The position numbers and the translations under genes were made by a program. 64,000 nucleotides of DNA. It comes from Coffea arabica (lineage: Eukaryota; Streptophyta; Magnoliopsida; Gentianales; Rubiaceae). The notes beneath the pieces were generated by a model. It saw only the letters and a program-made list of their open reading frames with translations, had not been told where the DNA came from and ran no database searches. Below, one piece after another: positions 832 to 49,939 of the stretch. The stretch covers positions 41,998,287 to 42,062,286 of the forward strand of contig NC_092326.1 of assembly GCF_036785885.1 (NCBI RefSeq), given 5' to 3'. Positions within the stretch are counted from its first letter, which is position 1, and each line of letters starts with the position of its first letter.

Positions 832-1430
832 GTATTAAAAATTTTGAAATTAAATCTTCGAATATGAGGATTGAAAAAATTGAGAGGATACAATCATGCA
901 ACGAGTCAATTATCCAAGAGATTAGATGCAAATCAGGAATTGTTAGAATCATGAGGCCCTCAATAACCAATAATAAGTCAGAAAAAGTGTTCCACAAAAA
1001 GTAAGGAATATTTTAAAATAGGAAGAAAAAGAGATCCAAGTTTGGAATCTAAGGAGATGTGCCTTTGACTGGTGCGAAATCCGCAGCCTCTCCGCACCAC
1101 GACTCCTCTCACCTTCTGTCAAATGACGAAAGTGCTGACCCAAAATAATTAAAATCGTTAGCCAATCATCATTTGCCATGTCAGAATTTAACCGGACTCA
1201 AAATCACGTCCAGGTTCAATGAACCTGGAGAGCCACCTCCTCCCTCGCTCCCTTCTTATAGCTTCTCATGTTTTTCCTCTCCCATAACTGCCTGTGACTC
1301 TCATTTCTCTCTGATCCTTAGCCGCTCCGAAGAAAATCATACTAATTCTTTGCAAACCCAGAGATCAAAAACCTTAATTTTTACAGAATTTTACGTCGTT
1401 CCTCATTTTCTTGAAAGGAGAAATAGTAGA
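1..1430. other. Intergenic region upstream of APS reductase
   Basis: AT-rich DNA with no coding region I can support. It contains one perfect dinucleotide microsatellite (listed separately). The last 200 bases before the APS reductase start are pyrimidine-rich and probably hold its promoter and 5' leader; no single element stands out. Confidence 0.6.
800..830. repeat. (TA)n microsatellite
   Basis: About fifteen uninterrupted TA units in otherwise AT-rich intergenic DNA. Such tracts are usually length-polymorphic. Confidence 0.95.
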
Positions 1431-3707
1431 ATGGCTTTGGCTTTTAGTTCTTCACCGGCCATTCATGGTTCTTTATCTTCTTCCCATGAGCAAAGTAAAG
1501 GTAAATTTTGGCTTTTTTTTCCTGTAAGAATTTATGTTGGTTTCTTGGGTTCTCTTTTATTAGTTTTTAATTTGTGGGCTGTTCTTTTGCACCAGTGGGC
1601 TCGCAGTTTGGTTCTTTTCAGCATTTGGATCGGCCGCATATTTTATCATCTTCGCTGAATGTTTCCAGGAGGCGGTCGGCGGCGGTTAAGCCGTTGAATG
1701 CGGCTGAGCCGAAAAGAAATAACTCCATTGTTCCATCCGCAGCAACCATTGTTGCGCCAGGTAATTCATGGAGTCTGGTTATGTTAAAAAATTTTGCCTT
1801 TGTTTCATTTTTCATTTTTAAAAAATTTATTTTTTGATCAGTTTGGGCTTAATAATGTGGTGCAATTACAGAGGTTGGGGACAAAGTTGAGGAAGAGGAT
1901 TACGAGAAATTGGCCAAGGAGCTTGAAAATGCATCACCACTTGAGATTATGGACAAAGCCCTGGCTAAGTTTGGAAATGATATTGCTATAGCTTTCAGGT
2001 GAAGTTGTGTGTTACTTTTTTCTTACTGGCTTGTTTTCTGTTAGTTGCAGAGTGATTTTAGTCCTTTCATATTCAGTCTTAGGGTCCGATTGTATTACTA
2101 CTTTGTGATACATGTATAGTTTTAAATGGAGGAAAATCATGGTGTTTGTGAATATGTATACTTGCTACTACATGGTAATGTTGAACAGACGATTCCCCGG
2201 TTTTACTATTAGATATCAACATAAGGCGAGGTCTGCCTGATACATGGTAAGTCACTTTAATATGGTTCTTGAAGCTCAAGGTGATTTATGTTCTTGTATG
2301 ATCATTTTCGAACAGAATTCTTGTGACATGCTTGCATGATCCTGTGGACAGATTACAAAAATTTGATCATATCAGTAATGTGAAAGGATTATAAACACTA
2401 GATTTAGAGGGCCTTGCAGTCTGGCTTGATGTATTTAACTTAGTGCCTTGATTTATGGTTATGGCAGTTTGATGATTACTTGCTTTGGTATTTTAGACCA
2501 CTGGGTTTTGATGAATTGTAACTTAGACACGTGGATTTTTATTATCTTCTGAACGAATGCGGATGTTTTTGTGCAGTGGTGCAGAAGACGTGGCTTTGAT
2601 TGAGTATGCACGATTGACTGGTAGACCATTCAGAGTATTTAGTTTGGACACTGGGAGGTTGAATCCCGAGACATATAAATTTTTTGATACGGTTGAGAGG
2701 CACTATGGGATTCACATTGAGTACATGTTTCCTGATGCTGTTGAAGTTCAGGCTTTAGTTAGGAGCAAGGGGCTTTTCTCTTTCTATGAAGATGGTCACC
2801 AAGAGTGCTGCCGCGTGAGAAAGGTCAGGCCCCTGAGGAGAGCCCTCAAGGGATTGCGTGCCTGGATCACTGGTCAGCGTAAAGATCAGTCCCCGGGTAC
2901 TCGATCTGAGGTCCCTGTTGTTCAGGTGGATCCTGCTTTTGAGGGCCTGGATGGTGGATTAGGCAGTTTAGTTAAGTGGAACCCTGTGGCAAATGTTGAT
3001 GGCAAGGATATTTGGAATTTCCTGCGGGCCATGAATGTGCCTGTCAACCTTTTGCACTCACAAGGTTACGTCTCAATTGGATGTGAGCCGTGCACAAGGC
3101 CTGTCCTGCCTGGGCAACATGAGAGAGAAGGAAGGTGGTGGTGGGAAGATGCCAGGGCTAAAGAATGCGGTCTACACAAGGGCAACCTGAAGCAGGATAC
3201 TCTGAATGGCAATGGAAATGGGGCTGTCCATGCAAATGGAAGCACAACTGTTGCTGATATTTTTGATACGAAGAATATTGTGAGCTTGAGCAGGCCTGGG
3301 ATTGAGAATTTGCTAAAGTTGGACGATAGAAGAGAGCCTTGGCTTGTTGTGCTTTATGCACCTTGGTGCCAGTTTTGCCAGGTGATTAATCTCACTATAC
3401 CTTTGAAACATTTTATTTGCCTACATTGACCTAATTAGATCATCATTCTCACTATGATTTATATAATGTCAAGCAGGCAATGGAAGGATCATATGTTGAG
3501 TTGGCGGAGAAGTTGGCCGTTTCTGGTGTGAAGGTTGCAAAGTTCAGAGCAGATGGTGACCAAAAAACATTTGCACAGAAAGAATTGCAACTTGGCAGCT
3601 TCCCAACTATTCTCTTTTTCCCCAAGAACTCCACTCGGCCCATAAAGTATCCAACCGAGAATAGAGATGTTGATTCTCTGATGGCCTTCGTGAATGCACT
3701 CCGGTAA
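1431..3707 (+). CDS. APR: 5'-adenylylsulfate (APS) reductase, plastidial
   Basis: Reduces APS to sulfite with glutathione in plastids, the committed step of sulfate assimilation. Five exons: 1431-1500, 1596-1760, 1872-1998, 2577-3381, 3477-3707, giving 465 residues, normal for plant APR. The N-terminus ([18 protein letters not shown]) is Ser-rich and acid-poor, as a plastid transit peptide should be. The reductase domain follows, with [38 protein letters not shown] and [11 protein letters not shown]; the CC and CxxC cysteines ligate the [4Fe-4S] cluster. The C-terminal thioredoxin-fold domain (exon 4 end and exon 5) has the redox site APWCQFC, used in plants like glutaredoxin, and ends [10 protein letters not shown]. 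The start is the first ATG of the transit peptide. Family assignment is near certain; which APR isoform is not resolved. Confidence 0.97.
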
Positions 3708-4689
3708 TGGCATTTAGAATGTCAAACTGATTGAGAAGCTTATTAGGTTTACATTCCTCATCTCCTAGCTCAACCAATTCAAGTTGGAAGAAAGGAATAG
3801 GACACTGGTGTTGCTTGAGGGTGGTACACGTTGGATGATGGCAGACTAGAAGTTTTGGAGAAGTTCACGTTCGCAGTTGCCTTTAGTTTTTGTCTGAGTG
3901 TCTTATTGTATATTGTTCATACGTAGATTTTAGTCCCTTCTGTTTTTGGACTTTCCATGTTCCTTCTAAGGCCTGTTGGAGCTATTTTGGACAATATGTT
4001 CCATACGTGGTTCATTGCAGCTGGCCTTATGGATGTGGAATTATTATGTCTGAATCCTGAGTTTCTCCATTTCTCTGCTCGCTTGATTTTCGATAGTGAA
4101 TCGTTACATCTTACGATGAGAGGACTGAGGAGAGGCGTTATAAAACATGAAATCTACATTCATTATCAATGGGGTGGGCGCTGAAGCCGTCTAGCAAATA
4201 TTAGGAATTTGGATCAAGAACTTAGGTGGCACCTGGATTGATTTATTAATATGTTGGCACAAAGGTTTGCTACTCTTCTGTCCGGATAAATGCTGCCATG
4301 GTGGAGCATTAACAATATACTAAGAGGATCAAGTGACAGTAACCAAATTGGAGTGTTACTTGGAATCATCTGCCCTATAGGAGAAATTTTAAAGAACTCT
4401 TTCTTTTACTCTCTTGAAAATAGTAGGACGATCAACTGATAATTTCAAAAATTGGAGGGTCACTTTGTGTATCATCTGCACTAAAGAATAAAAGCAAAAG
4501 GCAAAGAGGTTGTGGAAACTAACAAGGAATTCGATCATACCGCCAACGCGAAAGTAGCCTTAGGGGTTTAGTCCATTTTCAGATTCTCAGGGACAGAATA
4601 CAAGTGTGATAGAACTTAGGAGGGAATCGACTCTGCCTTAAAGGTGGCCGTTACGTTTTCTTAAGAGGCATAATCTTAAGAGGCTTCGT
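3708..4689. other. Intergenic, APR 3' region
   Basis: Begins with the probable APR 3' untranslated region. One open frame (3957-4184) has no recognisable domain. Nothing else supported. Confidence 0.5.
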
Positions 4690-5115
4690 GGAGTCGCCAA
4701 GTCATGTTCCAACCGAGTTGAGTGGATCTTTAGTCTAATCGAATCCAATCTCAATTTAATTTTATCAAGCTCGAACTCAACGAATTCTAAATGTAACAAC
4801 TAGAGCTTAAAAAAAAATAATTATTTTTTTAAATGAATAAAATAATTATTGTTGTTAACAAATAATAAAATATTAGAAATATATATATAATTTTACTATT
4901 AAAATAAAAAATAAAAATATATATAATCGAGTCGACTTGCGAACTAACGAACTGAATATTTTTGAACTCGAATTCGATTTGATTAGTTTGAGCTCGACTC
5001 AAACTCGATGTTGATCGAGCTTGACTTGAGATTTGACTCGAATTCGATGTTGATCAAGTTCGAGTCGAGTTTTGATTCAAACTGCTCACGAGCGGTTCGA
5101 TTCATTTGCAACCCT
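4690..5115. mobile_element. Degraded hAT-like non-autonomous element
   Basis: The stretch is full of alternating GAGCTCGA/TCGAACTC words, the hallmark of a common plant hAT MITE type. Its right end reads TTGCAACCCT in the + direction, as the right inverted end of such elements does. I could not find a matching left end or target duplication, so it is probably truncated and the left border is approximate. Confidence 0.45.
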
Positions 5116-5118
5116 AAA

Positions 5119-5864
5119 GTAGACATAGCCATGGTTCTAAAATCCTCAGTTCCAATTTAAAAACTTATAATTTTGATTCTTTTGAACGATGAAATTTGAA
5201 CCGACCCGGTTACAGTTCTTGAATCTCCAGTTACGGTTTCGATTCCTTTTGATTATGATTTTAGTTCTTTTAGTTACATGTAAGTACTTGTTATTATAAA
5301 ATTGATTCTAAGTAAATATGACAACGAATATAGAAAAAATTGAATTTTATTGTATTATGATGTGACAAGGAAAAAGAAAAATACATATTTTATTAAAAAA
5401 AACCTCAATTTATATTGAATGTTTTAAATAAAATAAAAAGATACAAAATTTTCTCATTGTTGAAATAGAGAAAAGGGAAAAAAATCTCAATTAATTAATT
5501 ATCGTCATTGCTTGCAAATGTACTAAAATATATTGTGTTCTTCATCTTCATTTTTTTTCCATTTCTCGAAGTCTATATTCTTAACTTTAGTCCAATCATC
5601 TACGCTTGCTCGAAATTTTAATAATTCTAGAGATAATTTTGCTCTTGATTCATCTATATTCTATTTCTTAGAGTGTATTTTTTAGAAGGTTTGAATAGGT
5701 CTTGAACCGTCAGTTCCAATTCTAGTTTTGATTCAAATTTTTTATGAATCTGAACCTAAATCTTTAGCCACGTTCATGGTTTCGGTTCCGATATCTCAAA
5801 TCCGGTTCCGGCTCTAGCTCAATAGATTGATTCGATTCAGGTTCAAATCTCAACCGTGACTACT
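5119..5864. mobile_element. Probable hAT-like MITE (diverged)
   Basis: Both borders read inward as GTAG followed by imperfectly inverted sequence (right end AACCGTGACTAC). The flanks CCCTAAAG and TCCTAAAT could be an 8-bp target duplication with two mismatches. The interior repeats GGTTCCGAT/AACCG words typical of these elements. No coding capacity. Borders are approximate. Confidence 0.4.
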
Positions 5865-6009
5865 CCTAAATTAGGTAGATCTTTTCCCCAGGCTTCCGTT
5901 ATACAATGTCCCTTATATCCGTTCATTAATTACTAATTATCCAGGTAACTCTCATTTTCAGAGCTTTAAGAATTTCATGAATCCCGGGTTTTAATTTCTT
6001 ACTCTTGAT

Positions 6010-6446
6010 TAGAGCTGTTAAATTTCACGAGTAGTTCGAAAGCTTGTTAGAGCTCGGCTTGATAAGGCTCAAGCTCGGCTCGTTAGTTGCGATAAACGAG
6101 TCAAGCTCGAGCTAGAAATGTGCTAGTTTAGTTAACGAGCCGAGTAAACTCGGCTCGTTTGATATCCGAGTAACTCGTTAGACCTCGTTAATAAAGGGCA
6201 TATTTGTCATTTTAGAAGTCAAAAGTATAAAAATTGAAAATTATAGATTTTATTGAGATTAATTTGCACGAGGTTGAGCTCGAACTTGTACGAGCTCGAA
6301 CTCGTGCTCGTGCTCGAGTCGAGTTTGTGATAAACGAGTCGAGCTCGAGCCACATGTACATTTGACGAGCCGAGTTCGAACACATTTTAAAGCTCGTTTG
6401 CCTAACGAGCTCGACAGCCAAATACTCGGCTCGATTAACAGCTCTA
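6010..6446. mobile_element. hAT-superfamily MITE, 437 bp, perfect 8-bp TSD
   Basis: Termini are TAGAGCTGTTAA and TTAACAGCTCTA, a 12-bp perfect inverted repeat. The element is flanked on both sides by CTCTTGAT (6002-6009 and 6447-6454), an exact 8-bp target-site duplication, which together with the TAG terminus indicates hAT. The interior is made of GAGCTCG/CGAGCTC words able to form extended hairpins and has no coding capacity. Perfect duplications suggest it is younger than the two degraded elements beside it. Confidence 0.9.
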
Positions 6447-6728
6447 CTCTTGATAACGCTATTCTAGAATCTTATTAGAAGTATTTCCATTAATCCTATT
6501 TCTTTATAATTCAAGAATTGTTAATGAATTAGGAACAAACTTTTAATTTCCAATTCAAATCATTGACAACTTGATAAAGGAAATCAAAGAGATGCTCGAA
6601 ACCCTTGACGAAGACAGGACGCAAAATTCGCATTGAAAATTGGAAGCAACCCATAATTCCTTGAACTATAATTGAGCTTTTATCAAGCTACATAAACTAT
6701 TATGGTCAACTGCATGTTGCTTCGTCAT

Positions 6729-7130
6729 TCATGGTACAGCTTCTTTTGGGCGGGCATTCAAGTCTTTGGCATCATTTGCAGTTTCAGGCTTTGCTGCAGA
6801 ATTTTCTGGTGGGTGACATTCGCAGATCCTGCTGACACACTTGAAGGAGGTGGTTCCGGGCGGACAAATAAACTGGCAATCATCGTCCGAATTGCAATGG
6901 ACGAAAACAACTCGCCTTGCTTCAACCCCGAATAAAACACCTGCAAAGTTTATTCAACATACACTACTTTAATTAAATTCTTCAGTGGATAAACAGCGTA
7001 AAATCTCCATCATGCTATACTAGAGAGAATCTATTGGAAAAGCGTTTAAATGGAAAAAGTAGAGATGCTGACAAGGTTCCATCACGCAAAGCGCCAGGAG
7101 AAAAACTACTAAGCTAAATGCTGTCTTCAT
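6729..7130 (-). CDS. Secreted cysteine-rich peptide, defensin/NCR-like
   Basis: Two exons on the minus strand, 7130-7073 and 6940-6729 (58 + 212 nt), encoding 89 residues. The N-terminus MKTAFSLVVFLLALCVMEPC continues hydrophobic to VLFGVEA, a signal peptide with likely cleavage after VEA. The mature part has six cysteines spaced C-x5-C-x3-C-x8-C-x4-C-x-C (CNSDDDC, then FIC, then FKC, then SRICEC), close to plant defensin-like and nodule-type cysteine-rich peptides. A 28-residue polar tail after the last cysteine ends in KEAVP and is unusual for this class. The single intron falls inside the signal peptide, as in plant defensin genes. The donor is CTT/GTCAGC (slightly weak), the acceptor TTTGCAG/GT; a TATA-like run lies upstream. 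Role unknown; defence or reproductive signalling is possible. The plus-strand frame across it is a shadow. Confidence 0.72.
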
Positions 7131-7190
7131 ATTTTTCTTTTTCTTCTTGTTTTAACTAAGTTGAAATTGTACGAAGAGCTAATGCAAGCG

Positions 7191-7213
7191 GATATATATG
7201 TATATATATATAG
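7191..7213 (-). promoter_or_regulatory. TATA-like element of the cysteine-rich peptide gene
   Basis: An alternating TA run 61-83 bases upstream of the minus-strand ATG at 7130, a fitting distance for a TATA box with a short leader. It could also be just an AT-rich tract. Confidence 0.4.
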
Positions 7214-7881
7214 CCATACAACTATTTTTGCGGTACACAGAACGTAGTCGAATCTTTAGTTACCACAAATTTGAAAAGGCAAAAAAAAAAAAAAAAAACA
7301 CATAATTATCTCCAAATACTTGTGCCAAAAATAAATAATAAACAAGTGGATGGTAGTGCCATCCATTAAATTGTAATTTAACATGGAAAGAGTGCCAAAA
7401 ACTTTTATATAGGAGTGCCAATATCATTTGCCTTCAATTATTTGGATCTGTATTTTGATAGCCCAATGTTCATTATGGTGGCGTGTATATTCGTGGACTA
7501 ATCCACTCCAATTTTAAATTCGTGTATATTCTCCCATTTTTTGACCCATTATAGAGAATCTAAGCAAGTCATAATTAGCACCAGATTCAATACCAAAGTT
7601 AGCTAATAGTCAACTTTTGGAATAGTTATAATTGTGCATTCTAAGAGTGAAAATATTGTGAATTAATACAATAGATCTCCAAAGATTTTCAATTTATCTA
7701 TATGGCATTTCATCATACACTTGGCAAGAATTTTTTTTTTTTGAGTTATTGTCACTATTTAAGAAATTTCCAAATATATTAAGAATTTTCTCGAAATAGA
7801 CAATCAATAATAAATAGAGAAGAACTTTTATTCACTTTGGAGATTGTAGACAAGTAGTAAAATTTGAACTATTAAAAATAA

Positions 7882-8063
7882 GGATTAACTTTTTATGCAT
7901 TGACAATGTAGTGATTTTTTTACACGAGCAGATTTGTATGTATACCACATGTGCATACTTTAAATTTCAAATTTGAATTCATTTTATGTGACATGATCTA
8001 ATCTTGCTAATGTAAAAAAAAAAAAAAAAAATTTATACATTGATAGTGTATAAAGAGTCATCC
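7882..8063. mobile_element. Tourist-like MITE (PIF/Harbinger), 182 bp
   Basis: Both ends read inward as GGAT followed by similar sequence (CTTTTTATGCATTGACAATG against CTCTTTATACACTATCAATG), about 28 bp of imperfect inverted repeat. The element is flanked by TAA on both sides, the 3-bp duplication typical of Tourist elements. No coding capacity. Confidence 0.65.
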
Positions 8064-8699
8064 TAAAAAAATTGTGGATTCATCTAATACGAATTAGCAA
8101 TTAAACTCCTAAGAGTTGTTATTCATATTTTAATGGGGATTGTACCTCTCAAAAAAGAACGAAGATAAGAGAGAAATTTTAAGAACGAAGATAAGAGAGA
8201 AATTTTAAGCGTGATGAGATTTCCATATTTGAGGTGCACATTGCATCAAGTAGATTAACAAGGAAATAAATTTTGAAACCAGATTAGTTTAGAAATTTTT
8301 TTAAGAAGAAGATTATTGTGGCAATAAACTCCAAATTAGTTGGATGCATGAAAACTAATCATAATTTAGATTTGAAATTCAAAATTATCATTTGTGCCAT
8401 AACAATGTTTCTATTGTGAGGGTCACCGTTATAGTAACTTTTAAACGAGAACATCTGATTTTTGAAAAAAATCTTTCATGTTACATCATTTAATTTTAAT
8501 TCAAAGATGTCTATTAAAATGAATGACGGCAACCTAGTGCATGTGATTATGTGATTTACTATTTAAATTAACTTCTAACACTTTTCTTTCAATAGCAAAC
8601 AATCCTAATTCATTCTTTGTAATTCAAGTGACATATTTTTCATGGACAATTAAATAAAGGAAATGGAAAGGACATAAAGTACATATTTAGGAAAACAAA

Positions 8700-8826
8700 G
8701 TGCAAGCAAACCATACATTCTTGAACCATGATTGAGCTTCAACAAACTTCTAAGCCTGTAATACTATAGATTTTGGTCAGTTACGTATACTTCATTTAGC
8801 TTCTTCTGGACAGGCATTCAACCCAT
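8700..8826 (-). pseudogene. Decayed 3' copy of the cysteine-rich peptide gene
   Basis: On the + strand this stretch aligns with 6640-6767, the C-terminal coding end and 3' flank of the cysteine-rich peptide gene. Shared landmarks in order are CTTGAAC, ATTGAGCTT, GGTCA, AGCTTCTT and the block GGCATTCAA. Read on the minus strand it gives LNACPEEAK then a stop, against LNARPKEAVP in the intact gene. Similarity breaks off at about 8827, so the cysteine core and signal peptide are absent. Best explained as a truncated tandem duplicate. Confidence 0.6.
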
Positions 8827-10576
8827 CCTCCTAAGGATAGCTGACCGTCTTGAATTCTTAATACTAAAAATAAAAAAAAATAAAAAAAAAAAACCTTTAA
8901 GCCTGGGTAAAGTCGCGAGATTTTTTTACTTCAGCCCGTCTAAGACTCAGGAAAGCCCAATTCACAGAGTCCTGAGAAAGCCCATGTTACAGCCCCACTC
9001 GTGGGCCCTGAATTCAAGATTCTCAGCCGTGTGTCCTTTCCTCCATCTCTATGTTTCACTCATCCTGGCTAAAATTCACCACAGTAAATTGTCCAACGAA
9101 TACGAGGCCGACCAAATGTCCGTTGCGTTGCAAATTTGCAATTTGCACACGCACAATGACAGGATTCTTTTGGAATTACCACCTACTCTTTTTTGGCATA
9201 ATGGATTTCAATTTATATACTCACAAGTCACATCTTTTTTTTTTTTAATAGATAATTCCTATTATACTCGTACTCCTACTTTATACTAACTCGCTGAAGG
9301 GAAGAGATGGATCCAAAGAATCCAATAAAGACTAGGAGAAAACTAAATCGCCGCTGGACCCGAATAATGCACGTCTGATGAAATTTTTCAGGAAGGAGGG
9401 CTTGAGTCCCTAGTGGCCATCTCAGCTAGGCTAAATTGGTTCTCACATCCTCTTATCTACCGAACAAAATAATCATTAAAAGGGGATTTAAAACATCAAA
9501 TCCCGTTGTCAGTTCCCCATTCCATACCGGAAATGGGGTCTGACAACCGTTCCTGAAGGCTCACAGTCATGATGTGGTCTCAAAAAAAGGTTCACCTGTA
9601 ATCATTTGTGCCCCGTGTCCTTCCATACCCAACCAACTGTTTCCAGAGGAGTTGGTTATCAGGGAGAGCTTTAAGATTCTTCTTAGGTGTAGGTTAAGGA
9701 ATCCAAACCCTTGACCTGGTCTAGGATTTCTTAGAAATATTACCGGAGGATCCAAAGGTATCTGTTTAGTTCGATGACGGTTCAATCCTCTTCAAATTTT
9801 TCATTGATTCCTTTGAGTTCACTTCTTTCCCTTAGTATAGAGTAGGAGTAGTTACAGAATAGAATTTATCGTATACAAAAAAAAATATCCCCATTCCATA
9901 CCCAACAAAATCCAGCTAGATTTAGACACATGGGGCTACATTCCTGTTCTGGCTCTTTTTTTTTTTTTGGGTAATATATATTCGTGTCCTGTCACTCAAG
10001 AAGTGAGATACTTCTCCAAAGAAAAAAAACAAAATAGGAATAACAGGAGAACTGGAACGGAATCAGAGATCCAGGCTGGAGCTCAGGATCAACGCCCTGA
10101 GAGTACAGAAAAAAAATCCAGAAGAAGCTCCAAGCATCCTCAAGAAAACAAAGAACTGAACCACATAAAAATCTTGATTATTTACGCCATACTATTCAAA
10201 CTTTCTCACTTTTTTCACCAAACGTATGATGAAAAAGCTCAAAGTACCCAAAGCTCCCCCAAAACACCTTTCACCGATTTTAATCGGAAAAGCATGTCGG
10301 TCCCAAGGCCATTATAGTCATTTGGACGCTACGAATTACAATCTGTAATGTCCTGTACCGCTGTCTAGTCGCAACTGGCAGACCTCTTGCTAGAACAATG
10401 TCCCATTTTCTTATCATTCACTATCAATCGAGTTCTACTTTTTCTCCTCTATAACTCCAGATCTTGGAAGTCAAAACCACCCCCAAAAACAGCACAAGTT
10501 TTCCCCAAAAGATAATGCAAAGTTTAGCTGACCAAGAACCAGAAGATGATTCAAGACATCCTCAAACCTTTCTTTA
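8827..10576. other. Intergenic, upstream of GH17 glucanase
   Basis: Low-complexity A-tracts and several open frames (8984-9289, 9967-10317) with no domain, signal peptide or codon pattern I recognise. The final 200 bases before 10577 are the likely glucanase promoter and leader. Confidence 0.5.
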
Positions 10577-13216
10577 ATGGCAAATTCTGAGCTAAGCTTC
10601 TCTGTTCTCTGCATTGTCTGCATTATATTCGCATCACTGTCCTATCTCAACCCAGGTAAAAGTAACCACAACCCATCTTAAAAAAATTCAATCTTGGCAT
10701 GTTTGAACTATTTATTTTACTTGATGTCTTTGGATTTATGAGTGGGTTATTTCTTGCAGGGATAAAGGCACAACAAGGCCACGAAGAGCCATATGTCGGA
10801 GTGAACCTAGGCACAGATGTGTCGAAACTACTTTCGCCAGCAGACTTGGTTGCTTTTTTGCAGTTGCAAAAGATTACTCACTTGAGGCTTTATGATGCAG
10901 ATGCTGATATTCTCAAAGCACTGGCTAAAACCAAGATTAGAGTCATCATCAGTGTGCCCAATAATCAGCTTCTTGCAATTGGATCGTCTAATACCACTGC
11001 AGCCACTTGGGTTGGTAGAAATGTGGCAGCATATTATCCACAAACTTTAATCACTGCCATTGCAGTTGGTGATGAAGTGTTAACAACAATTCCCAGTTCA
11101 GCCCCTTTGCTTGTGCCTGCAATTGAGTCACTTTACAGTGCTTTAGTGGCTGCAAATTTGCATACTGAAATTAAGGTTTCAACTCCTTGTGCTGCCTCTA
11201 TTGTTTTGGACCCTTTTCCACCTTCTCAGGCATTTTTCAACCAATCCTTGAGCTCGGTTATTTCTCAGCTGCTGCAGTTTTTGTCGAGAACCAAATCACC
11301 TATGATGATGAATTTGTATCCTTACTATGTCTTTATGCAGAACAAAGGGGTTGTCCCCTTAGATAATTCACTTTTTAGGCCCTTGACACCATCCAAAGAA
11401 ATGGTTGACCCCAATACTTTGCTCCATTACACCAATGTTCTTGATGCTATGATTGATTCTGTGTATTTTTCAATGAAGAATCTTAATGTTACTGATGTTG
11501 TGATTCTGGTTACTGAGACTGGTTGGCCTTCAAAGGGGGATTCGAAAGAGCCTTATGCTACAATTGACAATGCTGATACTTATAATTCCAATTTGATTAA
11601 GCATGTTTTTGATCGTAGCGGGACACCATTGCATCCAGAAATCACCTCTAGTGCTTATTTGTATGAGTTGTTCAATGAGGATTTGAGGTCACCGCCGGTT
11701 TCTGAGGCTAATTGGGGGCTGTTTTATGGGAATTCGACACCGGTTTACTTGCTTCATGTCTCTGGAAGTGGTACATTTTTAGCTAATGACACTACTAATC
11801 AAACTTATTGTATAGCCGCGGATGGAGTTGATACAAAGACTATGCAAACTGCTTTGGACTGGGCTTGTGGACCTGGAAGGGCGAATTGTTCAGAGATTCA
11901 GCCAGGAGAGAGTTGTTATCAGCCTAATAATGTGAAAGACCATGCTTCTTACGCATTTGATAGCTATTACCAAAAGGAAGGGAAGGCTGGTGGTTCTTGT
12001 GATTTCAAGGGTGTAGCCATGATAACAACCAGTGATCCAAGTAAGTTCTCAATAAGTATAGATACTGCAATCTGACTCCCAAAAGCTACAGATTCAACAT
12101 TGTATTCTGAAACACTTTTTTTTTTTTTGGGAAGACAGAGCATTCAATCATGGACAGTAGTTCATTAAGTGAATACGGTATAACATTATTGTATTGAAAT
12201 TTGAATGTGGACATATGCTGTGGTTGTTGGTTGAAATTAGAGTGGCGTGGTCGGTGGCAAGAGCTTTATTGTTCACTGACTTTGTCATCACGGCGCACTG
12301 CCTGGTTTAGAGATGATCCCTAATGAGGAGGACAGTGTGGTTTCTATCTTTATCGATGCCATATTGTTGTGCTCAGGGAAAATCAGTAAATGTTAGTACG
12401 CCCGAAAGAAAAGGTCAAAAACAGTAAAAAAAAATCCTTATATTCATGAAAGAAAAGGCTGGAGTAGAGGTTAAGATGGTGGTGGCCTAAAGGTAGGAAG
12501 CCCTTTGTAATTTCGTCACTTGGGAGTGCAAAATTGTCTGTTTCATTTTGGTAGCCTTAGGTGACTAGGCTGTCAATTGAATTCTTGGTCTTCCTTGCTA
12601 CTGCCATATTGTCTCACTCCATGTTTCCATGTGTGTAAGTGGGAGAGGAAAAATGAATTTACCTGAGTGTTTCTTCATTTCTTTTCATACCTTTAAGCAT
12701 TTGACATTGCTTCACTTATTTTCACTGTTTTTTGTTTGATCTATGTAGGCAATATGTGGTTCCAATTTCTGCTCTGTAATATTCCTCTCTCATAAATTAT
12801 CATCTGAATTGTGTTTCTTTTCTGGGGAAATTTTGCAGGTCACGGGAGTTGTATATTTCCTGGAAGGTGAGCTGATTGTCTCTGCTTTGTTAGTACATAT
12901 ATTTGTCCTTATCTTGCACATTACCCCACAATAAATTCGAGTAGAACAATTTGCACATGTCTATGAGTTTGTACTTTTAATAATCTTTTCTTAGTATCTT
13001 AATTTTTTCTAATTTGTCTTGTATATATAAAATTTTGAGTGCAGCAAGAAGTTAAGCAATAAAACAAGCCAGCAGGTAGTGAACTCAACACAAGCTAGTG
13101 GTGCAGTTACAATAAGATTCAGCAGTCTTCATGGTACCAGATTAAGTGCCTCCATGGGCTTTGACATCATCTTGGTGGTCACCTTTTGTTTATTTTATTC
13201 ATTGCTCCTTCCATAG
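10577..13216 (+). CDS. Glucan endo-1,3-beta-glucosidase, GH17-X8, GPI-anchored
   Basis: Hydrolyses 1,3-beta-glucan (callose) at the cell surface. Four exons: 10577-10655, 10760-12040, 12839-12866, 13045-13216, giving 519 residues. Order: signal peptide about 1-32 (hydrophobic VLCIVCIIFASLSYL, then GIKAQQ); GH17 barrel about 37-355 with general acid E132 in AVGDEV and nucleophile E279 in VTETGWPSKG; X8/CBM43 domain from QTYCIAADGV to SCIFPG with WACGPG and SCYQPNN cysteine motifs; Ser/Thr-rich spacer; C-terminal hydrophobic tail (FDIILVVTFCLFYSLLLP) expected to be exchanged for a GPI anchor. The 28-nt exon 3 (HGSCIFPG) is required for the last X8 cysteine. If intron 2 is retained, translation stops at 12075 with no anchor signal. 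Likely role: callose turnover at the wall or plasmodesmata; subgroup not certain. Confidence 0.93.
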
Positions 13217-19223: not shown

Positions 19224-19248
19224 TGTGGTGAGCGTGGATCGAACACGC

Positions 19249-19291
<43 letters not shown>

Positions 19292-19296
19292 CCCGC
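19224..19296 (-). tRNA. trnF-GAA (nuclear): tRNA-Phe (GAA)
   Basis: 73-nt cloverleaf on the minus strand without intron or encoded CCA. It has the D-loop AGTTGGGAG, anticodon stem-loop CAGACTGAAGATCTG with GAA at 19263-19261, and T-arm GTTCGATC. A and B box sequences are intact. Against the standard plant nuclear tRNA-Phe as I remember it, the body matches but the 3' acceptor strand reads TCACCACA instead of TCACCGCA. That makes position 71 A opposite C2, an unpaired second base pair. Confidence 0.9.
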
Positions 19297-43764: not shown

Positions 43765-46700
43765 TTACACAGAGTAGTTACAAAAAGGGGATACTACCCT
43801 CATCTCTGTCCTAGCTAAATCAGTCAGCCATATTGGGAAATCATTCTCCCATTCAATATCATGTACAAGCTTCACAGCATATTGTGCTAAATGATGGCTG
43901 ATTTGATTTTCAGTTCTAGGTATAAACACAAAGGAACATTTTTCAAAAGCTAGACTTAGTTCCTGCACATCTTCTAAGATAGTTGCAGTCAAGTAGTCAT
44001 ATTCCTTGCGTTTTGTAATCTGCTCAACCACTGATTTGCAGTCTGTATGGACTATAATTTTTGTCCAACCTGCTTGAGTAGCCATCAGCAGAGCATTTCT
44101 CACTGCCCGAGCTTCCACTTCACTTGCCGATCCCTTTCCCTGTGTGACAATTCCCTTTGCCTTCAAAATCTGTCCTTTCCAATTCCTTGCTACTATGCCT
44201 TGTCCAGTCCTAACTCTTTTAGCTGATATTGCAGCATCAGTATACAACCTTATCTCTCCCTTTCCTGTCCGCACCCTCCTGGTAGGTAAGTCATCATGCA
44301 TCCTCCCTGTACTCTCTAGCTGGTCTGTATTCCTAACCTGTTCAGACTCAAGCCATTCATCTTGTGCTTTCCTGACAATTCTTACTGGATCCTGGTTAAC
44401 ATTTTCAAAAAAATTTTTGTTCCTAGCTTTCCAAATTTGCCAAAGGATATTAATCGTAAGACCAACTCTCTCCTGCCCTTGACTCAGTGCCAGCGATTGT
44501 GTGACTTGTTCCCACCATAACCAAAAGTTATATTGCATATCCATTAGTCCATCCCACCTGACCGGTGCAAGCTTCCATGATTCCACAACTTTGTCGCAGA
44601 AGAAAAACAAATGCTCAATGGTTTCCATGTCTTCCCCACAGCATCCACATCTGCCTTCCCCTCTGTGTAGCCTTTTCGATAGTTGTTCATTGACTGGCAG
44701 GCAGTTTTGTAGGCACTTCCACATGAAGTGTTTCAGTTTGGCTTTCACTTTCAAATGCCATAACTGCTTCCACACATTTCGCTTTCGTATCTCCCAACTT
44801 GTTTCTGCATCTTGGCCTGTCCTTGTACCTACCTTTCCTTCCTGTTGCCTTGCTACAGCATAACCAGATTTCACATTATAAATTCCAGATTTGGAATGCC
44901 CCCATACCAACCTATCCTTTCTTCTTCCTATACTTGTTGGAATTCCTTTTATGTGCTCAGCATCTTTTGTGCTAAACCACTTCTGAAGCAATTCATTTTT
45001 CCATTTCCCTGCCTCTATCAGCTCACTCACCCATTCCAACTTGCATTCCACAGGTTTTGTTGTTGAAACAAAGCCAGTATCAGAGCCAACTATCCATCTG
45101 TCCCGCCACACACTGACTGACCTCCCATCTCCAATTCTTTTCCAAAGACCATCACACAGAAAAGAGGCTGCACTATGATTACTCTTCCAACACCATGAGG
45201 CAGAAGAGACCGGATTCTTATCCATCCATTTTTCATCTCTCATATACTTCGCCTTCATTACCTTACTTACTAACAAATTTGGAGCCATTAAGAATCTCCA
45301 AATTTGTTTTGCTAGTAAGGCAGTATTGAAGGCCTCCAAGTCTCTAAAACCTAAACCTCCTCTTCCCTTAACTTCCGATAGCTTCTTCCAGCTTGCCCAA
45401 TGTACACATGTGTCCTTTTCTCCCTTCCCCCACCAGAATCTCGCAATTTTACCTGAGATTTGTCTACACAAACCCCTTGGAAGTCTAAAGCAAGCCATCA
45501 CATATGTTGGCATAGCCATAATCACAGATTTGACCAGAATTTCTTTCCCACCTTGACTCAAGAGTTTTTGTTTCCAACCTTGCAACTTATGTCTGATTTT
45601 GTTCTGCACAAATGCAAAGACCTGAGTCTTCGATCTTCCTATTACCATTGGGAGTCCCAGATAGGTTCCATTCCTAGCCTCTTCAATGTTATGTAATTCC
45701 ACCCTCACTCCTTTCTTTCTTCGGTCAGTGGTATTTTTACTATAAAAGATAGCTGACTTTTCAAAATTTACCACCTGTCCAGATGCTTGACCATATTTTT
45801 CCAAGATGTTTTTGACCTTCCTCGCCTCCTGCTTGGTTGCTTGGCAGCATAGTAGCGAATCATCTGCAAAAAAGAGGTGAGAAACCATCGGACTATCCTT
45901 GCATATTTTGATCCCTGTTATTTCCTTGTTCATCATCGCTTTGTGGATCAAACATGAAAGGCCTTCTGCACATATAATAAACAGGTACGGTGATAGAGGA
46001 TCTCCTTGCCTAAGCCCTCTACTCGGTTGAATATAGCCTACCTTTTGCCCATTTAAGTTGAAGGAGTAAGTCACAGTAGATAGGCAAGACATGATCCATC
46101 TAACAAAAATAGGACAAAACCCCATTTTCATCATAACTCTCCCCACATACTTCCATTCGACTCTATCATAAGCTTTGGATATGTCCAGTTTAAGAGCCAT
46201 AAATCCTATCCTTCCCTTTCTCCTATTTTTCAAAAAATGCAAGATTTCGTGTGCAACTACTACATTATCCAGAATTTGACGGCCTGGGATAAAAGCGGAC
46301 TGAGAGGGACTAATACAATGATGCAGGACCCCTTTCAATCTATTAGCTATAATCTTAGAGATAATTTTATACATGACATTGCACAAGCTTATAGGTCTAA
46401 AATGCACTACCGATTCAGGAGTATCCACTTTTGGAATCAAAGAAATAATAGTGTCATTCACAGCTTTGAGCAAATGGCCAGTATGAAAAAAACTCTTAAT
46501 AGCTTCTACCACATCACTCTTAATAATATCCCAATAGTGTTGAAAAAATAGAGGAGACATACCATCCGTCCCCGGTGCTTTATTAGGGTGCATCGAGAAC
46601 AAAGCTTTTCTGATCTCACTTTCCTCCACTTGTCGTATCAGTTGTTCATTCATATGGCTCAAAATAGTGCTTGGAATATCAGCTAGAATGTCCTCAAAAC

Positions 46701-47925
46701 AGTCCGGATTTGTTGTTGTAAAAAGGTCTTTATAGTGCTGACAAAGTTCCTCCTCGATCTCATGTTCCTCCTTGCACCATGTCCCATCTTTCTTCTGCAA
46801 CGTACTGATCTTGTTTCTCCTCTTCTTTGCCATGACCGACGAATGGAAAAAAGCTGTATTCTTGTCCCCTTCTTTGAGCCACCTGCACCTGGATTTTTGA
46901 CTCCAAAACCTCTCTTCCTCTGCATAGGCTTTAGTCAATTGTGCTTTTAGATCGTCCACTTGTGCTCGTTTCCCATCGTCATTTCTGGCTTTCACTTCTG
47001 CCAAATTTTCCTTTAACATCTTAATTCTAGATTTTGAGTTTCCCTGCACTTTCTTCCTCCATTCCAGAATAGCCATTCGACATTCCTTTATTTTTGTAGC
47101 CACTCTAAACATCCTGGACCCTGACTTCACCTTTGTCCATGCTCCTTGAAACACTCTTTTTGCTTCTGGATATTGTGTCCATCTTTGGTCAAAATAAAAT
47201 CTCCGTTTTGGCCTTCTGGTTTCTGGATTTGTATCCACTAAAAGCATTAGATGATCAGAGGCTTCAGTTTCTATATGAGTACACTGTGCCTTTTCAAATG
47301 TTTGGAGCCATTCGGTGCTGCATAAACATCTATCCAACCTCTCTTTCACTTCCCCATCCCCCTCCCAACAATTGCACCAAGTCCACGGAACCCCTTGGTA
47401 ACCTAAGTCAACCAGATTATTGTCATTTATAAACCTGTTGAACTCCCTAAAACATCTTTCAGCTCTCTCTGTTCCTCCCCACTTCTCCTCACTAGACCGC
47501 AAGTCATTAAAATCACCAACTATGATCCAGTCCTCCCCCCAGTCCCTCATCCTGTCCTCTAAAAATTTCCATTGTGCTTTTCTAATATTACTATCTGTGC
47601 TTGCATAAACACACACTAGCCCCCAGTATCCTTGCGTATCCTTGTCCTCAACTCTAGCATTAATAAACCAATCAGTACTTACTATCTTGTCTAATGTCAC
47701 CTCATTGTTCCAAAATAATGCTAGACCGCCAGCTCTACCTATCGAATTCACAAAATAGCTATTGTCATACTTAATCTTCCTTTGAACCTTACCCATAAAA
47801 CCTTCCTGATTCTTTGTTTCACAAAGGAACACCACCTTAGGAGAGTGGAAGTTTGTCACTTCCTTCAGTTGGGGAATTGTCAAGGGGCCTCCTACACCTC
47901 GACAATTCCACACCACAACCTTCAT
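43765..47925 (-). CDS. LINE ORF2: endonuclease, reverse transcriptase, RNase H
   Basis: 1386-residue polyprotein with no interruption. An apurinic-type endonuclease occupies about 1-235: VVWNCRGVGG, LCETK, VGDFND (136-141) and ASDHLMLL (about 223). Reverse transcriptase spans about 480-760: FRPISLCNVMYKI, LDISKAYDRVEW (catalytic Asp about 581), GLRQGDPLSPYLF and FFADDSLL (FADD about 686-689). A zinc-binding zf-RVT segment follows (LWHLKVKAKLKHFMWKCL, then CGCCGEDMETIEHLFFFC). A C-terminal RNase H domain has LYTDAAIS, VEARAVRNAL and VHTDCKSVV carrying D-E-D, and ends with the RTENQISHHLAQYA helix. It nicks target DNA and copies the element RNA in the nucleus. Its ATG overlaps the ORF1 stop in ATGA. 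Confidence 0.96.
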   Translation of the reverse strand: MKVVVWNCRGVGGPLTIPQLKEVTNFHSPKVVFLCETKNQEGFMGKVQRKIKYDNSYFVNSIGRAGGLALFWNNEVTLDKIVSTDWFINARVEDKDTQGYWGLVCVYASTDSNIRKAQWKFLEDRMRDWGEDWIIVGDFNDLRSSEEKWGGTERAERCFREFNRFINDNNLVDLGYQGVPWTWCNCWEGDGEVKERLDRCLCSTEWLQTFEKAQCTHIETEASDHLMLLVDTNPETRRPKRRFYFDQRWTQYPEAKRVFQGAWTKVKSGSRMFRVATKIKECRMAILEWRKKVQGNSKSRIKMLKENLAEVKARNDDGKRAQVDDLKAQLTKAYAEEERFWSQKSRCRWLKEGDKNTAFFHSSVMAKKRRNKISTLQKKDGTWCKEEHEIEEELCQHYKDLFTTTNPDCFEDILADIPSTILSHMNEQLIRQVEESEIRKALFSMHPNKAPGTDGMSPLFFQHYWDIIKSDVVEAIKSFFHTGHLLKAVNDTIISLIPKVDTPESVVHFRPISLCNVMYKIISKIIANRLKGVLHHCISPSQSAFIPGRQILDNVVVAHEILHFLKNRRKGRIGFMALKLDISKAYDRVEWKYVGRVMMKMGFCPIFVRWIMSCLSTVTYSFNLNGQKVGYIQPSRGLRQGDPLSPYLFIICAEGLSCLIHKAMMNKEITGIKICKDSPMVSHLFFADDSLLCCQATKQEARKVKNILEKYGQASGQVVNFEKSAIFYSKNTTDRRKKGVRVELHNIEEARNGTYLGLPMVIGRSKTQVFAFVQNKIRHKLQGWKQKLLSQGGKEILVKSVIMAMPTYVMACFRLPRGLCRQISGKIARFWWGKGEKDTCVHWASWKKLSEVKGRGGLGFRDLEAFNTALLAKQIWRFLMAPNLLVSKVMKAKYMRDEKWMDKNPVSSASWCWKSNHSAASFLCDGLWKRIGDGRSVSVWRDRWIVGSDTGFVSTTKPVECKLEWVSELIEAGKWKNELLQKWFSTKDAEHIKGIPTSIGRRKDRLVWGHSKSGIYNVKSGYAVARQQEGKVGTRTGQDAETSWEIRKRNVWKQLWHLKVKAKLKHFMWKCLQNCLPVNEQLSKRLHRGEGRCGCCGEDMETIEHLFFFCDKVVESWKLAPVRWDGLMDMQYNFWLWWEQVTQSLALSQGQERVGLTINILWQIWKARNKNFFENVNQDPVRIVRKAQDEWLESEQVRNTDQLESTGRMHDDLPTRRVRTGKGEIRLYTDAAISAKRVRTGQGIVARNWKGQILKAKGIVTQGKGSASEVEARAVRNALLMATQAGWTKIIVHTDCKSVVEQITKRKEYDYLTATILEDVQELSLAFEKCSFVFIPRTENQISHHLAQYAVKLVHDIEWENDFPIWLTDLARTEMRVVSPFCNYSV

Positions 47926-49393
47926 TTACACATTGGAGGCATTGTGGGGCTAGCCTCCATTTCCCCTAGTGAGCCATCATTTATTTGATCCAGTTTCATT
48001 ACCTTTACCTTCGGTACTTTATCATCATCCTCCTCCATCGGCTGTGTCCCCTGAACCATACCATCAGCCTTCCTTTTAGCACTCTCAGCCTGCATTGCCT
48101 GCCCCTTTGTATCCGCCTTTAAGGATGTTTTAGCCGGCCTCCCTCTTCTTTTAAAACTGCTTCTTTTTTCAGATTTGTTATCTACTTCCCCTGGCATAGT
48201 CACTTTCCTTTGCATTTTTTCATTTGTCCCCACCTGCTTAACTGACTCTATCTGCAAATTTTCACCTTCCTTCCTTGAACTGTCCGTATCCATATCCTCA
48301 TTCCCTACTGATGGGATTACTCTGCTTCCACCTTTTAAGCCTTCCAGTACCCTACCCTCCTTTTCACCAATTCCCTCCATTAAAACTACTGCCCAACTTT
48401 CAACCCTTTGGTCTGCCTTTTCATACGGTCTGCTATCCTTTAAGATCTCATCCCACCTCTCTTCAGCTTGTCTCTTCATCATTTTCTCCTTATCCACCCT
48501 TTCCTTTTCCACCAACAGTCTACTATTTTTTCCCCCAACATTTAAAGTATCCCCAGCCGTTTGAACCCCAGATTGAACCTCTCCGCAAGGAGACCCTGCC
48601 CCCAACCTCCTTCCTCCAGTTTCACTTGCTCCTTCTAGACGTCCCTTTAAGGGAGATACCATAATATTTCCAACTCTCATCCAAGCACCATATTGTTCCT
48701 CTCGCTTCTCCCCCCCACCCTTCCTACCCCCGAACAAGACCTATCACTATGCCCTATGATACCACACCTATAACAGAAGTCAGGGCAACGTTCATACCTG
48801 AACTCAACCCACACTGCCTGGTCCTTAAAGTTAATCTTAGTCCCTCTAAGCAGTGGTTTTGTTATATCTACCTCAGCCATAATCTTCATGTGACGGCCCT
48901 CTTTCCCACCACTCCCTGGGATAATCACTCCCCTAACTGATTTAAAGATCCCTCCTATTTTCCTTCCCACTGCTCTGCTCAACCAATGCACCGGTAGGTT
49001 CCAGAGTTGAATCCAAAGAAAGGAATGCTGGAAAAACCTGCTGTTTCTATCAAACCCCTCTACCCACTCCTTCACTATCAGCATCTGGTTGTCTATAACC
49101 CAAGGCCCTCCAGATAAGATCTTTTTCTTCTCCCCTTCATCTCCCAGATGAAACTGAAATAAGTTAGGACCTAACTCATTCACATTCAGCTTTGCAGGGT
49201 ACCCCCATGCATGATTAGTAAAGTTCTTTAGCCCCGTGAAATTAGCTATTTTTTCACCTATCAGCTTTCCTACCAGACTTCCTTGACACTCTGTTACGCC
49301 ATCTTCCAAGTCCTCACCGCTCAGATCTACACCACCTAACTCTGTTTTAGACAAGTCGAAATTTTGAAAGGCTCTTTCTAAAGCATCCGCCAT
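47922..49393 (-). pseudogene. LINE ORF1: DUF4283 + CCHC RNA-binding protein, frameshifted
   Basis: Starts at the ATG of MADALERAFQNFDL. Residues about 35-180 form the DUF4283 domain (IANFTGLKNFTNHAWGYPAK, FHLGDEGEKKKILSGGPWVI, SFLWIQLWNLPVHWLSRAVG), and CYRCGIIGHSDRSC (207-220) is a CCHC zinc knuckle. The frame then closes at 48677, while the expected continuation (EEQYGAWMRVGN, then a long charged Lys/Glu tail ending MEASPTMPPMCK) is in another frame from about 48737 to 47922. The switch lies in a C/G homopolymer region near 48710-48735, so a one-base indel, a sequencing error or ribosomal slippage could each explain it. The protein would bind element RNA and act as its chaperone. Confidence 0.85.
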
Positions 49394-49939
49394 TCCTGTT
49401 ATATGAGCTCCTTGAAAAACCAAGCACTATTTCAGAGCTATGAGTGACCTACTGACAGACCTGTGATGCAAAGCGAAGAAAAACGAAGCTGTGTTATCAG
49501 TACACACTAGAAAACCAACAGAAATACAGAGAGGAACTAGACTGAAAAAAGGAACAAGAAGAACGAAAAGGAAAACAAACAGAGAAAGACAAACTAACAA
49601 ACTATTCCACCACCAACCACATAAAAGCAAAAAGGAAAAGGAAAACAGAACGACGCTCCAACTTCCAACAACTCTCTGAATCAATAGATCCTGTCTTGCC
49701 CACCGCCATTACTCCTCCAACCGATACCGAACCACAACAAACTTAGTCCCCCATTTTGAAGCCGAAAAGAAAGTGGCTTCAGGACAGGGAACATGAAGGC
49801 AAAGGTTGGACAAAGATTTGATATTAGATCTGAAAAGTTAAGCTTTTGAAAATGCTATGTGTTTCAACCTCACCCACTCTCCCACACCGAGGAGGAAACC
49901 TCTAAAGTTAGAGAAAGAAGCTCTCAAAGAGAGAGGAAC

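What the first reader, a model, noticed from the sequence alone, without database searches (positions are those of the whole stretch)
6729..7130. A split-gene secreted six-cysteine peptide with NCR-like spacing and a long polar tail
The two exons only show themselves when spliced: signal peptide from the first, then C-x5-C-x3-C-x8-C-x4-C-x-C from the second. The C-x5-C-x3-C and C-x4-C-x-C parts match the spacing of nodule-specific cysteine-rich and other defensin-like peptides. Those best known are from legumes; this window looks non-legume. The 28-residue tail after the last cysteine (ending KEAVP) is not standard and may be a propeptide. The exact 89-residue fit across a GT-AG intron inside the signal peptide argues against chance.
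Basis: partly seen in the sequence, partly recalled or inferred. Interest (0 to 1): 0.75.

Follow-up and report, generated by a model that had tools for sequence, protein, structure and literature searches.

The report
Six-cysteine defensin-like peptide in coffee
This looks like a genuine two-exon coffee gene for a small secreted, disulfide-rich peptide, a slimmed-down relative of ordinary plant defensins with a loose tail; it resembles legume nodule peptides in form but nothing shows that it does their job.

Summary
In detail: spliced across a GT-AG intron, window 7130-6729 (minus strand) encodes 89 residues with a signal peptide, C-x5-C-x3-C-x8-C-x4-C-x-C and a 28-residue tail. The genome is Coffea arabica. 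Chance is unlikely: the exact spacing arose in 0 of 300 random windows, and the homeologous chromosome keeps frame, splice sites, cysteines and tail (dN/dS 0.22, p 0.02-0.06; one in-frame three-base gap at the last codon, against 11 gaps outside). Yet coding bases differ as often as the non-coding ones around (11 of 267, 17 of 436), so constraint is supported, not proven. A tandem relic on the homeolog has lost a cysteine; this chromosome lost that copy. Coffee's own eight-cysteine defensins explain the design: 27 of 30 loci tested give the same phase-1 intron inside the signal peptide, and 24 of 30 space their inner cysteines x5-x3-x9-x6-x1. The peptide is a defensin-like protein without the outer cysteine pair, predicted with a cysteine-stabilised alpha-beta fold. 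'NCR-like' is fair as shape only: the late-nodulin model stays below cut-off, and there is no gene expansion. The tail is near neutral, unlike class II defensin propeptides. Expression and function are untested. Modest interest.

The parts
7073..7130 (-). Exon 1 (58 coding bases): start codon and most of the signal peptide, MKTAFSLVVFLLALCVMEP plus first base of codon 20
   Evidence: 96.6% identical and no gap against the homeolog
6941..7072 (-). Intron, 132 bases, GT-AG, phase 1 (splits codon 20)
   Evidence: homeolog intron has the same splice sites but two gap events, 39 gapped bases
6729..6940 (-). Exon 2: end of signal peptide (VLFGVEA), six-cysteine domain and tail, with stop TGA at 6731-6729
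   Evidence: 95.6% identical and no gap against the homeolog up to V88; BLAST puts one three-base gap in the coding part, which fits the missing last residue
6813..6917 (-). Predicted mature cysteine core, from R28 (after VEA) to about H62; C35-x5-C41-x3-C45-x8-C54-x4-C59-x-C61
   Evidence: two single-sequence AlphaFold2 models; the cleavage site is inferred from the -3,-1 rule, no predictor was run
6732..6815 (-). 28-residue polar tail after the last cysteine, predicted disordered
   Evidence: pLDDT blocks of 56, 65 and 49; 27 residues in the homeolog
7192..7212 (-). TATA-rich tract about 60-80 bases before the ATG, candidate core promoter
   Evidence: sequence; present in the homeolog, where 7215-7131 is 96.3% identical while the region beyond is 68.5%. 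Function inferred
8843..9092 (.). Place where the homeologous chromosome carries a decayed tandem paralog (C18:39001332-39001535); here 250 unrelated bases stand instead

Best explanation
A working nuclear gene of Coffea arabica for a secreted six-cysteine defensin-like (DEFL) peptide. Shown by sequence: two exons, phase-1 intron in the signal peptide, an intact homeolog in the other subgenome, cysteine order of the cysteine-stabilised alpha-beta (CS-alpha-beta) fold. Inferred: the signal peptide is removed after VEA; three disulfides C35-C54, C41-C59, C45-C61 hold a helix against a beta-hairpin (they correspond to the inner three of a plant defensin, whose C1-C8 bond is missing); the tail stays flexible or is trimmed. 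Most likely it goes to the cell wall space or vacuole and acts outside the cell as a mild, nearly neutral defence or microbe-modulating peptide.
For: Gene model and 89 residues. Chance control. Intact homeolog with the same splice sites. 6 synonymous to 5 non-synonymous changes, dN/dS 0.22. Gaps: none up to V88 by MAFFT against 18 events in 732 aligned non-coding bases around, or 9 in 465 if the poorly aligned stretch beyond 7216 is left out; by BLAST one three-base gap in 267 coding bases against 11 events in 436 non-coding. In the same genome 27 of 30 defensin loci tested give a best two-exon model, all 27 with a phase-1 intron inside a signal peptide; 3 gave none. 24 of the 30 have inner-cysteine spacing x5-x3-x9-x6-x1 against x5-x3-x8-x4-x1 here. 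Fold predicted as strand-helix-strand-strand with pLDDT 87, 87, 91 for the first thirty residues and 77 for the next ten; helix and hairpin again in the core model. Foldseek lists small potassium-channel toxins among its best matches, TM 0.74/0.76 to 2k4u. Pfam's two matches, PF07127 and PF00451, are both small cysteine-rich families.
Against: No transcript or protein evidence. The dN/dS test is weak (p 0.018 to 0.065 by method), and the coding part differs from the homeolog as often as the non-coding bases aligned with it (11 of 267 against 17 of 436, Fisher p 1.0) and more than the long flank 1155-6009 (2.6% mismatches). The AlphaFold models rest on one sequence (pTM 0.46 and 0.48; mean pLDDT of the five models 59-77 and 66-83). 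No Foldseek hit reached E 0.001, and unrelated folds such as a Sarcocystis lectin stand at rank 4 in the first search. Pfam scores are under the cut-offs. A defence role has no direct support: the core is neutral (charge -0.1 at pH 7), and strong antimicrobial activity goes with cationic peptides in NCRs (PMC9515463, passages).
Confidence: 0.55

Rival explanations
1. A reproductive signalling DEFL: a LURE- or ES-type peptide secreted by ovule, style or pollen and read by a receptor kinase, species-specific in sequence.
For: DEFLs of flowering plants act in pollen tube guidance and burst (listing and abstract starts of PMC3525529, PMC5673899 and PMC4526917). Low copy number and a neutral charge fit a ligand as well as an antibiotic.
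Against: No expression data. No tandem cluster of intact copies was found; the tandem partner is decayed. Substitutions lean to constraint, not positive selection.
Confidence: 0.2
2. A dying gene: a defensin paralog that still reads open because the two subgenomes parted recently.
For: The coding part differs as often as the non-coding bases around it. The tandem copy on C18 lacks a start codon at the aligned place, is shifted by one base at the splice junction and has lost the fifth cysteine (read by eye); the chromosome of the window lost it. The only other late-nodulin-like locus pair also looks decayed.
Against: Gaps avoid the coding part or keep the frame, six of eleven changes are synonymous, and all six cysteines, both splice sites and the start are kept.
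Confidence: 0.17
3. An NCR-type peptide proper, that is a member of the late-nodulin family serving to control bacteria living in the plant.
For: Six cysteines with NCR-like spacing; Nodulin_late is the best Pfam match, 22.4 and 24.1 bits for the two cores against 15.6 and 12.6 for two of ten cysteine-fixed shuffles and nothing for the other eight; phase-1 intron as in NCR genes (PMC12461094); three NCR-class genes are reported from Arabidopsis (PMC3924332, passages).
Against: Below Pfam's cut-off (30.4); Toxin_2 follows closely; coffee forms no root nodules (established knowledge); no expansion seen. The same intron occurs in ordinary coffee defensins.
Confidence: 0.08

Closest known systems
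Plant defensins (PF00304), including those of the same genome
   Same: Phase-1 intron inside the signal peptide, CxxxC...CxC core, first spacing x5 and second x3; a signal-peptide end GVVEAR in L077 and L078 against FGVEAR here
   Different: Six cysteines, not eight (outer pair missing); shorter loops (x8, x4); neutral; 28-residue tail; no PF00304 match listed
Legume NCR / late nodulin peptides (PF07127)
   Same: Two exons, phase-1 intron, six cysteines as in 'group B' (PMC12461094), small secreted peptide
   Different: Under the family cut-off; host has no root nodules; one intact gene per subgenome found; long tail
Arabidopsis 'NCR-class' genes found by SPADA (PMC3924332, passages seen)
   Same: Few genes, non-legume, with NCR-like cysteine layout
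Scorpion alpha-KTx short toxins (PF00451)
   Same: Predicted fold and cysteine order; among the best Foldseek and phmmer neighbours
   Different: Below cut-off (17.8-20.9 against 25.1 bits); plant gene with plant gene structure; a shared-fold resemblance only
Class II defensins with C-terminal propeptide (NaD1) and Datisca nodule defensins with acidic tail
   Same: Secreted cysteine core followed by a C-terminal extension of 28-40 residues
   Different: Defensin domains and acidic tails there (PMC3922462, PMC3756986, passages); here six cysteines and a tail of charge -1.2, or -0.1 in the homeolog
Coffeetides
   Same: Coffee cysteine-rich microproteins made as precursors
   Different: 37 residues, eight cysteines, hevein-like motif, propeptide before the mature part (PMC10538209, passages)

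Membership tests
Plant defensin-like (DEFL) superfamily | Signal peptide plus two-exon gene with phase-1 intron before the cysteine core | tested here: met
   (signal peptide by inspection of hydropathy); same layout in 27 of 30 coffee defensin loci tested, no model for 3
Plant defensin-like (DEFL) superfamily | CS-alpha-beta cysteine order CxxxC...CxC and strand-helix-strand-strand fold | tested here: inconclusive
   Cysteine order met; fold predicted, from single sequences, with modest pTM
Canonical plant defensin (PF00304) | Eight cysteines with the C1-C8 outer bond | tested here: not met
   Six cysteines in the mature part; C1 and C8 columns empty in the alignment with coffee defensins
Canonical plant defensin (PF00304) | Match to the Pfam model | tested here: not met
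   PF00304 not listed at E <= 1 or E <= 10; locus absent from the 60 genome matches
NCR / late nodulin (PF07127) | Score above the curated cut-off of 30.4 bits | tested here: not met
   18.0 (full), 22.4 (core); homeolog 20.2 and 24.1; 22.8 and 25.2 in the genome scan
NCR / late nodulin (PF07127) | Four or six cysteines and phase-1 intron | tested here: met
   criteria as given in PMC12461094; exact NCR spacings are recalled
NCR / late nodulin (PF07127) | Expression confined to root nodules, action on bacteroids | not testable with these tools
   No expression data; that coffee forms no root nodules is established knowledge
NCR / late nodulin (PF07127) | Large lineage-specific gene family | tested here: not met
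   Three related loci found: two intact homeologs and one relic; one other late-nodulin-like locus pair. Lower bounds, as only best candidates are scored
Class II defensin with propeptide | Acidic C-terminal propeptide of about 33 residues balancing a basic core | tested here: not met
   Tail 28 residues, charge -1.15 (homeolog 27 residues, -0.06); core -0.12; definition from PMC3922462
Scorpion short toxin (PF00451) | Score above the cut-off of 25.1 bits | tested here: not met
   17.8-20.9 bits for the window peptide and its homeolog
Coffeetide / ginsentide | Eight cysteines with an adjacent CC pair | tested here: not met
   Six cysteines, none adjacent; definition from PMC10538209

The most novel reading that the evidence does not exclude
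Rubiaceae kept, from an ancestral six-cysteine defensin, an NCR-like peptide that manages bacteria living in or on the plant, parallel to legume NCRs. The tribe of coffee (Coffeeae) holds genera with bacterial leaf nodules or leaf endophytes (Sericanthe, Tricalysia, Empogona; PMC10405798, passages). Coffee's single gene per subgenome would be the unexpanded state, with the disordered tail as an added control of release or activity. Against it, the same paper cites Burkholderia on leaves of C. arabica only as surface dwellers, not as endophytes.
Probability: 0.04. Interest if true: 0.75.

Novelty: new member of a known kind. Interest (0 to 1): 0.3.

Why it matters
Small split genes of this kind are often missed by gene prediction (abstract of PMC3924332), so a checked model in a major crop is useful. 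It also gives a clear example of how an NCR-like six-cysteine layout can exist in a non-legume: same intron and kind of signal peptide as the local defensins, outer cysteine pair absent. If intact orthologues are found across Rubiaceae it becomes a test case for whether NCR-like peptides existed before, and apart from, root nodules.

Tried and rejected
Chance open frame: rejected. Canonical defensin: rejected on cysteine number and Pfam. NCR membership: not met on score. Coffeetide: rejected. Two weak hits on C20/C19 to the other late-nodulin-like locus (E 1.1, 1.9) looked like homeologs but, from the surrounding frames, appear to lie in a P-loop GTPase-like gene (GPPGSGKTTYCNG; judged by eye, no search): not taken as relatives. 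The PF07127 hit over the cut-off on C22 (32.0 bits in the genome scan, 29.6 for the piece scanned alone) has five of six cysteines and no phase-1 first exon among the candidates sought in the roughly 1.5 kb held upstream; its C21 homeolog is frame-shifted and had one candidate (L071 893-978), not followed: read as relics. The acceptor look-up for these two loci failed (string not found) and is not used. A five-cysteine frame beside the C21 copy matches no Pfam family. NCBIfam: nothing. The bacterial promoter/terminator scan is not informative for a plant gene. The paper search by assembly size found nothing relevant.

Withdrawn on checking: a test (p 0.036) compared non-synonymous changes with a flank rate of 5.3% that includes gaps. 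The mismatch rate of that flank is 2.6%, and coding and non-coding bases of the gene's own alignment differ equally. I dropped that test, lowered the best explanation from 0.60 to 0.55 and raised the dying-gene rival from 0.10 to 0.17.

Limits: the genome search scores best candidates only; no other plant genome is held; no RNA-seq; no signal-peptide predictor was run; orthologues in C. canephora or C. eugenioides could not be examined. The intron-phase count used a home-made scoring of splice sites and signal hydrophobicity on the 30 loci held of 38 matches over the cut-off; several are near-identical copies, so 27 is not 27 independent cases.

Full report
Where it is. The window lies in a genome of 1,197,963,845 bases in 131 contigs. 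Of contigs C1-C22 I saw the lengths of 15, all 41-77 Mb; the seven sampled beyond (C23-C28, C30) are under 170 kb. A 1,198 Mb HiFi assembly of Coffea arabica ET-39, 2n = 4x = 44, is described in PMC11018527 (passages seen). On contig C1 an exon of a Methyltransf_7 gene (L067) differs at one of 128 residues from the solved 3,7-dimethylxanthine methyltransferase 2efj. I therefore take the genome as C. arabica and C17/C18 as homeologs from its two subgenomes.

The gene. On the minus strand, 7130-7073 joined to 6940-6729 gives MKTAFSLVVFLLALCVMEPCVLFGVEA followed by RRVVFVHC-NSDDD-C-QFI-C-PPGTTSFK-C-VSRI-C-E-C and 28 further residues ending KEAVP. The intron is 132 bases, GT-AG, phase 1. The hydrophobic N-terminus and the end VEA make a standard signal peptide by inspection (hydropathy; no predictor run).

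Not chance. The exact six-cysteine pattern occurs once in the six frames of the window and 0 times in 300 first-order Markov windows; a relaxed pattern once in the window and once in the 300; a spliced model with a signal peptide 0 of 300. Homology adds to this. A second copy on C18 is syntenic: window 1155-6009 aligns to that region at 94.7%, gaps counted. The C18 gene has the same start, splice sites, six cysteines and tail, and lacks the last residue (88 residues). Between them lie 6 synonymous and 5 non-synonymous changes, dN 0.025, dS 0.11, ratio 0.22; p is 0.018 by sites and 0.023-0.065 by the transition bias assumed. The non-synonymous changes are F43Y, S51Y, V55I, S67F and D79H: none touches a cysteine. 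MAFFT puts no gap in the coding part up to V88, against 18 events in 732 aligned non-coding bases, or 9 in 465 without the poorly aligned stretch beyond 7216. BLAST puts one three-base gap in 267 coding bases and 11 events in 436 non-coding ones.

Against strong constraint: in that BLAST alignment 11 of 267 coding bases and 17 of 436 non-coding bases mismatch, no difference (Fisher p 1.0), and the long flank differs less, 2.6%. So the case for selection rests on the kind of changes and on the gaps, not on their number.

Copy number. DNA and protein searches of the genome find three loci: these two and, about 2.1 kb away on C18, a decayed tandem copy. That copy aligns through exon 2 but has tyrosine at the fifth cysteine, no start codon at the aligned place and a one-base shift at the splice junction (by eye). 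At 71% DNA identity it is older than the subgenome split, and the matching place in the window (8843-9092) holds 250 unrelated bases, so this chromosome lost it. The counts are lower bounds.

What it is. Coffee's own canonical defensins give the key. PF00304 has 38 matches over cut-off in the genome. Of the 30 loci held, 27 yield a best two-exon model and all 27 put the intron in phase 1 inside the signal peptide; 3 gave no model. Of the same 30, 29 show the eight-cysteine pattern, 24 with inner spacing x5-x3-x9-x6-x1, 4 with x5-x3-x10-x8-x1 and 1 with x5-x3-x9-x9-x1; one is incomplete. The window peptide, x5-x3-x8-x4-x1, aligns to cysteines 2-7 and lacks 1 and 8. Two of those defensins (L077, L078) also have a similar signal-peptide end (GVVEAR against FGVEAR). 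The simplest reading is a defensin-like peptide without the outer disulfide. Whether the pair was lost or never gained cannot be told without other species.

Fold. AlphaFold2 without an alignment gives strand-helix-strand-strand for residues 29-89 with a loose tail (mean pLDDT 76.7, pTM 0.46) and helix plus hairpin with a two-residue first strand for the 38-residue core (82.9, 0.48). Foldseek hits are weak (best E 1.1 and 0.40; none under 0.001). For the core they include ADWX-1 2k4u with TM 0.74/0.76 and kaliotoxin 2ktx with 0.71/0.71 at ranks 2 and 3; the plant defensin SPE10 3psm is 18th of 36. Unrelated folds appear too, a Sarcocystis lectin at rank 4 in the first search. phmmer against solved structures gives six short scorpion peptides at E 0.021 to 3.2 for the core. 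This fits a shared small fold, not a shared function.

NCR-like or NCR. PF07127 is the best Pfam match and PF00451 the second; both are under their cut-offs. Ten shuffles that keep the cysteines in place score 15.6, 12.6 and nothing for eight, so the 22.4 and 24.1 bits of the two cores are more than cysteine spacing, but modestly. A six-frame scan of the genome with PF07127 lists 17 matches at E up to 10: one over cut-off on C22, its C21 homeolog second, the C18 homeolog third and the window gene fifth. The C22/C21 pair looks decayed. Literature seen: NCR and defensin genes share the phase-1 two-exon layout (PMC12461094, passages and section 2.1); three NCR-class genes were found in Arabidopsis (PMC3924332, passages); NCRs and actinorhizal nodule defensins are placed in one subclade of defensins (PMC9387825, passages). 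So an NCR-like gene outside legumes has precedent. Searches joining coffee with late-nodulin, NCR, DEFL or defensin terms (listing 6 of 7, 20 of 60 and 10 of 13 papers) showed no title about this gene; only listings were seen, except coffeetides (PMC10538209, passages). That is no proof that it is unpublished.

The tail. It is kept in frame in both homeologs, with two amino-acid changes and a one-residue difference in length. It is near neutral, not acidic, unlike the NaD1 and Datisca extensions (PMC3922462, PMC3756986, passages). Such tails differ in role: NaD1's sends the peptide to the vacuole, while that of DgDef1 did not in tobacco (PMC9387825). What this one does is untested.

How it probably works. 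Shown: gene structure, intact homeolog, cysteine layout. Inferred: secretion, three disulfides C1-C4, C2-C5, C3-C6, extracellular or vacuolar action. A defence or microbe-modulating role is the default for this superfamily and my first choice; a reproductive signal and a gene on its way out are the main rivals. The neutral charge argues against a strong membrane-attacking antibiotic.

Verdict. Observation confirmed; interpretation partly right; a new member of a known kind, of modest interest.

Noticed in passing
window 6010-6444: 435-base insertion about 285 bases past the stop codon, with a 9-base target duplication, short inverted ends and an empty site on C18: a MITE-like element specific to this subgenome copy.
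   Followed up: partly
window 43765-49423, minus strand: Non-LTR (LINE-type) retrotransposon: 1386-codon open frame with endonuclease, reverse transcriptase, zf-RVT and RNase H-like domains, and a neighbouring frame with DUF4283 and a zinc knuckle.
   Followed up: no
L047/L070 (C22:57711967-57712155) and L048/L071 (C21:40832887-40833048): Late-nodulin-like locus pair, five of six cysteines; the C22 frame passes the PF07127 cut-off in the genome scan (32.0 bits), the C21 copy is frame-shifted. Another five-cysteine frame lies nearby in L071 (832-991 of the reverse strand).
   Followed up: partly
genome contigs C3/C4 near 8.13-8.18 Mb, C7/C8 near 47-50.7 Mb, C11/C12 and C21/C22: Groups of canonical defensin genes, 38 matches over the PF00304 cut-off; 27 of the 30 tested fit a phase-1 intron in the signal peptide.
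   Followed up: partly
window around 6445-9528 against C18: Divergence between the homeologs varies along the locus: 2.6% mismatches in 1155-6009, about 4% around the gene, 10.8% in 9093-9528 beside the lost paralog. Not explained.
   Followed up: no
window 19224-19296, minus strand: tRNA-Phe gene (anticodon GAA), the only Rfam match at gathering threshold in the window.
   Followed up: no
window 2557-3429, 10699-12075, 53937-54596: Neighbouring coding pieces: PAPS-reductase domain, glycosyl hydrolase 17 with X8 domain, aminomethyltransferase (GCV_T) domain.
   Followed up: no
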